This document shows positions 30,643 through 32,163 of a stretch of 32,163 nt of DNA, one piece after another. The stretch's first letter is position 1. Every line of letters starts with the position of its first letter. The notes under the pieces are model-generated. The model did no database searches. It was not told the origin of the DNA and saw only the letters and a program-made list of their open reading frames with translations. A program made the translations under genes and the position numbers. Source of the DNA: an uncultured Saprospiraceae bacterium (GTDB taxonomy: Bacteria; Bacteroidota; Bacteroidia; Chitinophagales; Saprospiraceae); contig CAMZLN010000030.1 of assembly GCA_947311465.1 (NCBI GenBank), positions 1 to 32,163 on the forward strand, in the 5' to 3' direction.

Positions 30643-30889
30643 TTTGTAATCACAAAACATTGGTTGAGCAAACGGATGTCTTTATCTGAAATTGAGAAAT
30701 CGTAATAGTATATCTATGGAACTGTGTTTCTAGGTTATTTTTTACAAAATCTGTAAAAAAAACAATTGATAGTGCAGAATAAAGCCCTTTTTATTGCTTT
30801 TTATATTTTTTTATCTTATTTTGCATACAAAAGAGCAATATAATGCATATTAATGGATTGGTTGAAAAATAAAAGTCCGTAGAAAGGTA

Positions 30890-31063
30890 ATGAAAATTAC
30901 TCAAAAAAGCCTAGCAGAATTATCTGGTGTAGGCTTGCGAACTTTAAAACACTTAGAGAGTGGTCATGGAAATCCAACGTTGGAAACCATTAGTAAAATT
31001 GCAGATGTTTTGGGGATGGAGCTATGTCTTAAAATAAAAGATTTAGAAGATATTCAAATTTAA
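30890..31063 (+). CDS. hipB: HipB-like helix-turn-helix component (57 aa as read; N-terminus possibly lost to an indel near 30871-30874)
   Basis: MKITQKSLAELSGVGLRTLKHLESGHGNPTLETISKIADVLGMELCLKIKDLEDIQI*; not in the ORF track (<60 aa). Confidence 0.85.
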   Translation: MKITQKSLAELSGVGLRTLKHLESGHGNPTLETISKIADVLGMELCLKIKDLEDIQI

Positions 31064-31069
31064 AACAAA

Positions 31070-31396
31070 ATGAGGCAAGCGAAAATTTTATTTAGAACTG
31101 AAGATGCAGGAATCTTGATACAACATGATAATGGTTCTTATACATTTCAATATAATGAGATGTGGCTTGCAGATACTCATAAGCCTCCAATCAGTCTTAC
31201 TTTTCCTAAGAAAAAAAGGATGTTTCAATCAAATTATTTTTTTCCTTTTTTTTTCAATATGCTTCCTGAAGGTAGCAATAAAGAATTGATTTGTAAATAT
31301 AACCGTATTGATTTGGATGATTATTTTAGTCTTCTTATGTCTATTGCGAAAGGAGATAATATTGGGGCGGTGAGTGTTGAAAATATAGAATTATGA
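31070..31396 (+). CDS. hipS: HipS-like protein: stand-alone HipA N-subdomain 1
   Basis: 108 aa; QHDNGSYTFQYNEMWLADTHKPPISLTFPKKK...NMLPEGSNKELICKYNRIDLDDYFSLLMSIAKGDNIGAVSV matches the HipA N-terminal subdomain. Confidence 0.88.
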   Translation: MRQAKILFRTEDAGILIQHDNGSYTFQYNEMWLADTHKPPISLTFPKKKRMFQSNYFFPFFFNMLPEGSNKELICKYNRIDLDDYFSLLMSIAKGDNIGAVSVENIEL

Positions 31397-32163
31397 ATGT
31401 CCCCGAAATACAATATTGTCCAGGAACACTTGCAAAAGGTTTTGATACATATAGTCGAACATGTTTAAAAAGAGTATTTCATGGTAAAAAAGTAAATCAC
31501 ATACTACCTTATGATTCTCCTTTAGTTAATTCCATAACAAATCAGTTATTTGAAAATAATCGTAGGCGTATATCCATTTCAGGGGTTCAGGAAAAATTTT
31601 CAGTTTTACTTGAGAAGAATAAATTGAGATTAACTCAAAAAGGTGAGCAAAGCAATTATATTTTAAAACCTATCCCTAAATTTGGTGAAAGAGCAGATCA
31701 AATGCCCGCAAATGAACATTTAACTATGCAAATTGCTCGTCAAGTATTTGGAATTGAAATAGCAGAAAATGCCCTTATTTTCTTTAAAAATGGAAGTCCA
31801 TCTTATATTACAAAACGATTTGATATTGATAAAGATGGTTTTAAATTGGCTCAAGAAGATTTTGCATCATTGGCAGGGAGAACACCGCAGACGCATGGAG
31901 AGCATTATAAATATTTAGGAAATTATTTAGAATTATTTGAATTAATGAAGCAATATGTTCCTGCTTATAAAATAGAAGCTCACAAACTTTTGAAATTACT
32001 CATGTTTAATTATCTTTTTTCAAATGGAGATGCTCATTTTAAAAATTTCTCTTTACTCGAGACTTCAATGGGCGATTACAAGTTAAGTCCAGCTTATGAT
32101 CTTCTTAATACCCGTATTCATATCAATGATAATGATTTTGCCCTCAATGATGGTCTTTTACCA
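31393..32163 (+). CDS. hipT: HipT-like Ser/Thr kinase toxin (HipA core), truncated by window end; absent from ORF track
   Basis: ATGA overlap with hipS. Translation MNVPEIQYCPGTLAKGFDTYSRTCLKRVFHGKKVNHILPYD...NNRRRISISGVQEKFSVLL...NEHLTMQIARQVFGIEIAEN...FNYLFSNGDAHFKNFSLL...LSPAYDLLNTRI. Confidence 0.9.
   Translation, partial: MNVPEIQYCPGTLAKGFDTYSRTCLKRVFHGKKVNHILPYDSPLVNSITNQLFENNRRRISISGVQEKFSVLLEKNKLRLTQKGEQSNYILKPIPKFGERADQMPANEHLTMQIARQVFGIEIAENALIFFKNGSPSYITKRFDIDKDGFKLAQEDFASLAGRTPQTHGEHYKYLGNYLELFELMKQYVPAYKIEAHKLLKLLMFNYLFSNGDAHFKNFSLLETSMGDYKLSPAYDLLNTRIHINDNDFALNDGLLP

What the first reader, a model, noticed from the sequence alone, without database searches (positions are those of the whole stretch)
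30890..32163. HipBST-like tripartite toxin-antitoxin operon in a Bacteroidota genome
Gene order is HTH (HipB), then a 108-aa stand-alone HipA N-subdomain (HipS), then a HipA-core kinase (HipT), with a 6-nt gap and an ATGA overlap. This matches the HipBST system described in enteropathogenic E. coli, where HipS rather than HipB neutralises the kinase and HipT targets TrpS. The kinase carries RRRISISGVQEKFSVLL, containing the two-serine S-I-S autophosphorylation motif, and the catalytic/metal motifs GDAHFKNFSLL and SPAYDLL. Its target and antitoxin logic in this lineage are untested.
Basis: partly seen in the sequence, partly recalled or inferred. Interest (0 to 1): 0.65.

Follow-up and report, generated by a model that had tools for sequence, protein, structure and literature searches.

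The report
Bacteroidota HipBST toxin-antitoxin operon
This is a three-gene toxin-antitoxin operon of the known HipBST kind, belonging to a lineage widespread in Bacteroidota that differs from both studied systems; in this genome its first gene carries a one-base frameshift and the toxin gene is cut by the contig end.

Summary
The three ORFs are there, with the stated gap (6 nt) and ATGA overlap. HipS and the HipT kinase are well supported. Two details were missed. (1) hipT is cut by the contig end; its last ~68 codons lie on another contig of the same genome that shares an exact 59-nt end. (2) "HipB" at 30890 is an internal start. The conserved gene starts at 30843 and is broken by a one-base deletion, so the 57-aa ORF lacks the first HTH helix.

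80 Bacteroidota loci (73-82% identical HipT) carry the same operon. All 79 readable kinases have the SIS loop, and all 78 readable HipS have LPEG-[STPA]NK. The family is HipBST, but not the EPEC type invoked: HipT scores 100 bits to Legionella HipT and 47 to E. coli HipT, and HipS lacks the inhibitory Trp. Its tree clade is also separate from the SIQ-loop Bacteroidota kinases that resemble Legionella HipT. TrpS as target has no support.

New here: an inverted operator pair (AGTGC-N8-GCWCTTTT) flanks the promoter in relatives, and its only two genome matches lie at this locus. In this genome the -7 box, both operators, hipB and HipS depart from relatives while HipT does not, so the copy may be decaying. 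Known kind, modest interest.

The parts
30771..30791 (+). O1, predicted HipB operator (AGTGC-N8-GCCCTTTT), upstream copy
   Evidence: Same site at -72/-73 in 41 of 63 relatives in strict form; 0.01 loci expected in shuffles. One of only two RTGCN8GCYCTTTT matches in the 3.04-Mb genome. PWM 15.2 against a median of 25.6 in relatives.
30816..30823 (+). Position of the Bacteroidota -7 promoter element; here TTATTTTG instead of TAnnTTTG
   Evidence: TAnnTTT[GA] present in 63 of 63 relatives (TAnnTTTG at exactly -27 in 48 of them); absent in the window.
30829..30848 (-). O2, predicted HipB operator, inverted copy overlapping the hipB start codon
   Evidence: Strict form at -11 in 39 of 63 relatives; second of the two genome matches; PWM 16.9 against a median of 28.8.
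30843..30872 (+). Conserved 5' end of hipB, closed early by a one-base frameshift (MHINGLVEK-stop; A-run 30865-30869)
   Evidence: 47 nt to ATG 30890 against 48 nt in relatives; downstream frame reads IKVRRKVMKITQ.., matching relatives' IKERREVMQVTQ...
30890..31063 (+). hipB remainder: 57-aa HTH ORF from an internal ATG, lacking the first HTH helix
   Evidence: HTH_3 E=2e-12 from profile position 9; couple_hipB 46 bits, below its cut-off of 71.65.
31070..31396 (+). hipS: 108-aa stand-alone HipA N-subdomain 1, inferred antitoxin
   Evidence: TIGR03071 E=3e-25, Couple_hipA E=2e-19; HipS(Lp) 60 bits, HipS(Ec) 37.5 bits; model pLDDT 89, best fold match HipS(Lp) TM 0.87.
31393..32163 (+). hipT: HipA-core Ser/Thr kinase, inferred toxin, first 257 codons; cut by the contig end
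   Evidence: HipA_C E=1e-39; HipT(Lp) 100 bits, HipT(Ec) 47 bits; 3' end on contig C26 17696-17754 (-) with an exact 59-nt overlap.
31564..31614 (+). Gly-rich (P-)loop RRRISISGVQEKFSVLL with the S-I-S motif
   Evidence: Read directly; SIS in 79 of 79 relatives.

Best explanation
A HipBST-type toxin-antitoxin operon of a Bacteroidota lineage. [quoted passage not shown] its target is unknown, with an aminoacyl-tRNA synthetase the class most likely by analogy. HipS, the missing N-lobe made as a separate protein, would bind HipT and hold its Gly-rich loop out of the active site. It would do so without the Trp plug of E. coli HipS, using the conserved LPEG-[STPA]NK turn or its surroundings. HipB, an HTH protein, would repress the operon by binding an inverted pair of AGTGC-N8-GCWCTTTT operators that flank the promoter, one overlapping the hipB start codon. 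Homology, architecture, conservation and the operator pair are shown here. Kinase activity, neutralisation, DNA binding and target are inferred. In this particular genome hipB is frameshifted and the promoter and operators are degenerate, so its regulation, and perhaps the whole module, may be impaired; a base-call error in hipB cannot be excluded.
For: Domain hits. The same B-S-T order, sizes and overlaps in 80 Bacteroidota loci at 73-82% HipT identity, as far as they could be read. SIS in 79/79, catalytic NGDAHxKN in 79/79, Mg motif SP[AS]YDL in 79/79, HipS EG-[STPA]NK in 78/78. PDB scores. HipS fold. Tree: HipT types against HipA 100/99, the window's clade 93/81. Operator pair. Published HipBST mechanism in E. 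coli and Legionella (PMC6581861, PMC10627512, PMC10653801). Flanks not shared between loci, and plasmid copies including one beside a replication gene, fit a mobile TA module.
Against: No experiment on this lineage was found. hipB is frameshifted and the promoter -7 box altered in this genome. HipS here departs from strongly conserved columns more than any of 79 relatives, 4 of 40. hipT is not complete on one contig.
Confidence: 0.82

Rival explanations
1. The copy in this genome is a decaying remnant: promoter and repressor are damaged and the operon no longer works as a TA module, although HipT still looks intact.
For: One-base frameshift in hipB; -7 box lost while present in 63/63 relatives, both operators about 10 bits below the median; HipS more diverged at conserved columns than any of 79 relatives, HipT not unusual.
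Against: HipS and HipT frames are open and keep all motifs; only one frame-breaking change was found; a fragmented assembly (339 contigs, 83.5% complete) can carry a homopolymer error; 12 of 63 relatives have operators as weak as the window's or weaker.
Confidence: 0.35
2. An EPEC-type HipBST: HipT phosphorylates TrpS and HipS inserts a bulky residue into the kinase.
For: Same gene order; S-I-S loop as in HipT(Ec); grouping E. coli HipT with the window's clade is not rejected (AU p 0.17).
Against: HipT 47 bits to HipT(Ec) against 100 to HipT(Lp); HipS has Ser-Asn where HipS(Ec) and H. influenzae HipS have Trp; the closer characterised relative HipT(Lp) is not rescued by TrpS (PMC10653801).
Confidence: 0.12
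3. A simple split of a classical HipA, neutralised by HipB as in HipBA.
For: HipS and HipT together cover the HipA domains; HipB is of the Y4mF/HipB type.
Against: HipA proteins of the same family of bacteria lie outside all HipT types with 100/99 support; HipA scores only 27-33 bits; HipS is stand-alone in all loci that could be read.
Confidence: 0.04

Closest known systems
HipBST of Legionella pneumophila (Lpg2368-2370; PDB 8EZR, 7VKB, 7WCF)
   Same: Gene order and sizes; best PDB match for HipT (100 bits for the window's part, 108 for a full-length relative) and HipS (60 bits, TM 0.87); no Trp in the HipS plug; homologs reported as widespread in the FCB group.
   Different: Loop is SVQ there, SIS here; HipS plug is PEGIM there, PEGSNK here; operators differ (three evenly spaced 18-nt sites there, an inverted pair around the promoter here); other Bacteroidota kinases with an SIQ loop and PEG[IAV][ML] HipS form a separate clade in the tree.
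HipBST of E. coli O127:H6, H. influenzae, T. auensis (PDB 7AB3-7AB5, 7CZO)
   Same: Gene order, SIS loop, overlapping genes, all kinase motifs.
   Different: Only 47-55 bits to HipT(Ec); HipS(Ec) Trp65 replaced by Ser-Asn; TrpS target not indicated.
HipBST clade with SIS loop in other Bacteroidota (e.g. Flavobacterium frigoris, Chitinophaga, Flagellimonas, Flammeovirga kamogawensis plasmid p2)
   Same: Same clade, about 65-82% HipT identity, same HipS turn; operators in most of the close relatives.
   Different: Their hipB is unbroken and their -7 box intact where read.
HipBA (E. coli K-12, S. oneidensis)
   Same: Kinase fold family; HTH partner.
   Different: HipA carries its N-subdomain in one chain; HipA proteins lie outside the HipT types in the tree.

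Membership tests
HipBST (split-HipA tripartite TA) | Three genes in the order HTH - HipS - HipT, closely spaced | tested here: met
   same in the 80 relatives as far as they could be read.
HipBST (split-HipA tripartite TA) | HipS of ~100 aa homologous to HipA N-subdomain 1 | tested here: met
   Couple_hipA E=2e-19; TM 0.87/0.84 to HipS(Lp)/HipS(Ec).
HipBST (split-HipA tripartite TA) | Kinase lacks N-subdomain 1 but keeps Gly-rich loop, catalytic and Mg motifs | tested here: met
   HipA_C only, from residue 60; SIS, NGDAHFKNF, SPAYDLL. The C-terminus is on another contig.
HipBST (split-HipA tripartite TA) | Kinase groups apart from HipA in phylogeny | tested here: met
   100/99.
HipBST (split-HipA tripartite TA) | HipB with a complete HTH that autoregulates the operon | tested here: inconclusive
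   In the window hipB is frameshifted and the ORF lacks helix 1, real or an assembly error; complete in relatives. DNA binding not testable.
HipBST (split-HipA tripartite TA) | HipS, not HipB, neutralises a toxic HipT | not testable with these tools
   Needs expression in a laboratory strain.
HipBST of E. coli type | HipS Trp65 inserted into the kinase active site | tested here: not met
   PEGSNK in the window; [STPA]NK in 78/78 relatives.
HipBST of E. coli type | S-I-S double serine loop | tested here: met
   79/79 relatives.
HipBST of E. coli type | Target TrpS | not testable with these tools
   Needs rescue or phosphoproteomics.
HipBST of Legionella type | Closest sequence match among solved structures | tested here: met
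   HipT 100 bits, HipS 60 bits, the highest of all PDB entries.
HipBST of Legionella type | S-[VI]-Q loop and PEGIM-type HipS | tested here: not met
   SIS and PEGSNK; Bacteroidota kinases with SIQ and PEG[IAV][ML] are a separate clade, 100/99.
HipBA | N-subdomain and kinase in one chain, HipB as antitoxin | tested here: not met
   Separate ORFs; tree. The antitoxin role of HipB was not testable.

The most novel reading that the evidence does not exclude
A third HipBST lineage, spread across Bacteroidota by horizontal transfer: SIS autophosphorylation loop, HipS inhibition without a Trp or other bulky plug (LPEG-[STPA]NK), and repression through a conserved inverted operator pair around the promoter, with a target that is neither TrpS nor GltX.
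Probability: 0.4. Interest if true: 0.45.

Novelty: new member of a known kind. Interest (0 to 1): 0.3.

Why it matters
The two HipBST systems studied so far differ in loop chemistry, in how HipS blocks the kinase, and in target. This clade combines the E. coli-type double serine with a HipS that lacks the Trp plug, so it separates two features that have been discussed together. It is common in Bacteroidota, where the papers searched report no characterised HipBST system. The invariant SIS and NK positions and the operator pair give direct mutational tests.

Tried and rejected
Classical split HipA: rejected by the tree and scores. EPEC-like with TrpS as target: not supported. Membership in the Legionella SIQ clade: the nearest characterised relative, but the tree and both signature motifs put the window's clade elsewhere; the exact branching of the window's clade, the Lp-like and the E. 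coli types is not resolved (AU p 0.12-0.17). A predicted structure of a full-length relative HipT was too poor to use (pLDDT 59.7). No phage record carries a close relative. No Rfam match. The sigma-70-type promoter scan was no better than shuffles, as expected for Bacteroidota promoters. A second species in the same genus to check the hipB frameshift was not available.

Full report
What is in the sequence. The three ORFs stand as described: HTH 30890-31063, HipS 31070-31396, kinase 31393 to the window end, with a 6-nt gap and an ATGA overlap. Pfam and NCBIfam give HTH_3 (E=2e-12), Couple_hipA / TIGR03071 (E=2e-19 / 3e-25) and HipA_C (E=1e-39). Two corrections follow.

First correction: hipT is cut by the assembly. 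The window is the whole of contig C30 (32163 bp). The last 59 nt recur exactly on contig C26 of the same genome (17696-17754, minus strand), followed there by about 68 codons that match the missing C-terminus of relatives. Before those 59 nt C26 carries unrelated sequence, so the assembly graph forks inside hipT.

Second correction: hipB is frameshifted. In relatives HipB reads MH[FLY]..LIKTIKERREVMQVTQETLAELSGVGLRTLKQFESGKGNPTL.... In the window the conserved start is ATG 30843, but that frame stops after nine codons (MHINGLVEK-stop), and the rest, IKVRRKVMKITQKSLAELSG..., continues in another frame. The distance from the start to the internal ATG 30890 is 47 nt instead of 48. The 57-aa ORF therefore lacks the first helix of the HTH (Pfam match from position 9). 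Either a real deletion or a homopolymer error in a 339-contig, 83.5%-complete assembly could cause this; no second genome of the genus was available.

Relatives. 80 loci in public genome contigs encode HipT 73-82% identical over the 257 residues. Apart from one record titled only 'uncultured bacterium', all are named as Bacteroidota (Flavobacterium, Chitinophaga, Mucilaginibacter, Dyadobacter, Flagellimonas, Bacteroidales MAGs and others). As far as they could be read they have the same order, HipS of 106-114 aa, and -4 / -1 / short-gap junctions. SIS occurs in 79/79 kinases, the catalytic motif NGDAHxKN in 79/79, and HipS has EG-[STPA]NK in 78/78. Close to the window's genome, 12 of 99 other genomes of its family have a kinase at 54% identity or more. 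Across the phylum sample 20 of 395 other genomes match a full-length relative at E<=1e-60. Flanking DNA is hardly shared between loci (6 and 8 of 1081 pairs), none of the 80 has the window's upstream phosphoglucomutase gene, and plasmid copies exist, one next to a replication initiation gene in Flammeovirga kamogawensis. This is the pattern of a mobile TA module.

Which HipBST. The window's HipT scores 100 bits to HipT(Lp), 47 to HipT(Ec) and 25-30 to HipA; a full-length relative scores 108, 55 and at most 33. The window's HipS scores 60 bits to HipS(Lp), 44 to H. influenzae HipS, 38 to HipA and 37.5 to HipS(Ec). A HipS model (pLDDT 89) matches HipS(Lp) best, TM 0.87, then HipS(Ec), 0.84. In a tree with other Hip kinases of Bacteroidota, HipA lies outside all HipT types (100/99), and the window sits in a clade of SIS-type kinases (93/81; 98/90 in the set with one more row). 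That clade is separate from kinases with SIQ loops and PEG[IAV][ML] HipS, which look like the Legionella type, and from kinases with T[VI][TP]-like loops and PEGW HipS. One kinase of the PEGW group scores even higher to HipT(Lp) (150 bits) than the window's clade does. E. coli HipT is a long branch and its place is unsure (AU p 0.17 for joining it to the window's clade). HipT(Lp) itself was not put in the tree.

Literature. HipBST was defined in E. coli O127, where HipT phosphorylates TrpS and HipS is the antitoxin (PMC6581861); a Trp of HipS enters the active site, and both loop serines matter (PMC10627512). The Legionella system works alike, but lacks that Trp and the double serine, and its toxicity is not rescued by TrpS or GltX; homologs are described as widely distributed in the FCB group (PMC10653801). 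The window's clade shares the double serine with E. coli and the absence of Trp with Legionella. Whether published trees already include this clade could not be checked, since their supplements are not readable here.

Regulation. Aligning upstream DNA shows two inverted copies of AGTGC-N8-GCWCTTTT: one at -72 in 41 of 63 loci in strict form and one overlapping the hipB start codon in 39 of 63; shuffles give 0.01 loci. They flank a Bacteroidota -7 box, TAnnTTT[GA], present in 63 of 63 (that this is the -7 consensus of the phylum is my own knowledge). The second copy covers the ATGCACT of the start, which would explain why HipB begins Met-His in nearly all loci. The motif is absent from the loci of the other HipT types examined. 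In the 3.04-Mb genome a relaxed pattern occurs twice, both here (30772-30791 and 30829-30848), with 0 for the reversed control. The relaxation was fitted to the window's own sites, so the count is illustrative, and one chance hit or so would not be surprising. HipB binding is inferred.

State of this copy. In the window the -7 box reads TTATTTTG, both operators score about 10 bits under the median (12 of 63 relatives are weaker), hipB is frameshifted, and HipS departs at 4 of 40 strongly conserved columns, more than any of 79 relatives, while HipT is ordinary (3 of 134; 14 of 80 relatives depart as much or more). This fits relaxed selection on regulator and antitoxin, or early decay. The numbers are small and the frameshift unverified.

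Verdict. A member of the HipBST kind, in a Bacteroidota clade distinct from both characterised systems, with an unverified lesion in hipB. The EPEC/TrpS reading is not supported. Function remains inferred from homology.

Noticed in passing
30771-30848: Inverted operator pair AGTGC-N8-GCWCTTTT around the promoter of this HipBST clade; the downstream copy overlaps the hipB start codon and constrains its first codons.
   Followed up: yes
L103 3697-3814 (contig C26 of the same genome): The 59 nt shared with the window end are preceded on C26 by 59 nt of unrelated sequence: a fork in the assembly inside hipT, possibly a strain variant or rearrangement.
   Followed up: partly
L099-L102, L119, L127-L129: A second group of HipBST operons in Bacteroidota with PEGW HipS and T[VI][TP]-like loops; L101 scores 150 bits to Legionella HipT.
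   Followed up: partly
L096-L098, L126: A third group with SIQ loop and PEG[IAV][ML] HipS, the likely counterparts of the Legionella system in Bacteroidota.
   Followed up: partly
L116 5459-6987 (Flammeovirga kamogawensis plasmid p2): A plasmid copy of the window's clade directly downstream of the replication initiation gene, a typical addiction-module position.
   Followed up: no
31070-32163: HipS and HipT match weakly the PADLOC candidate defence families PDC-M03B and PDC-M03A.
   Followed up: no
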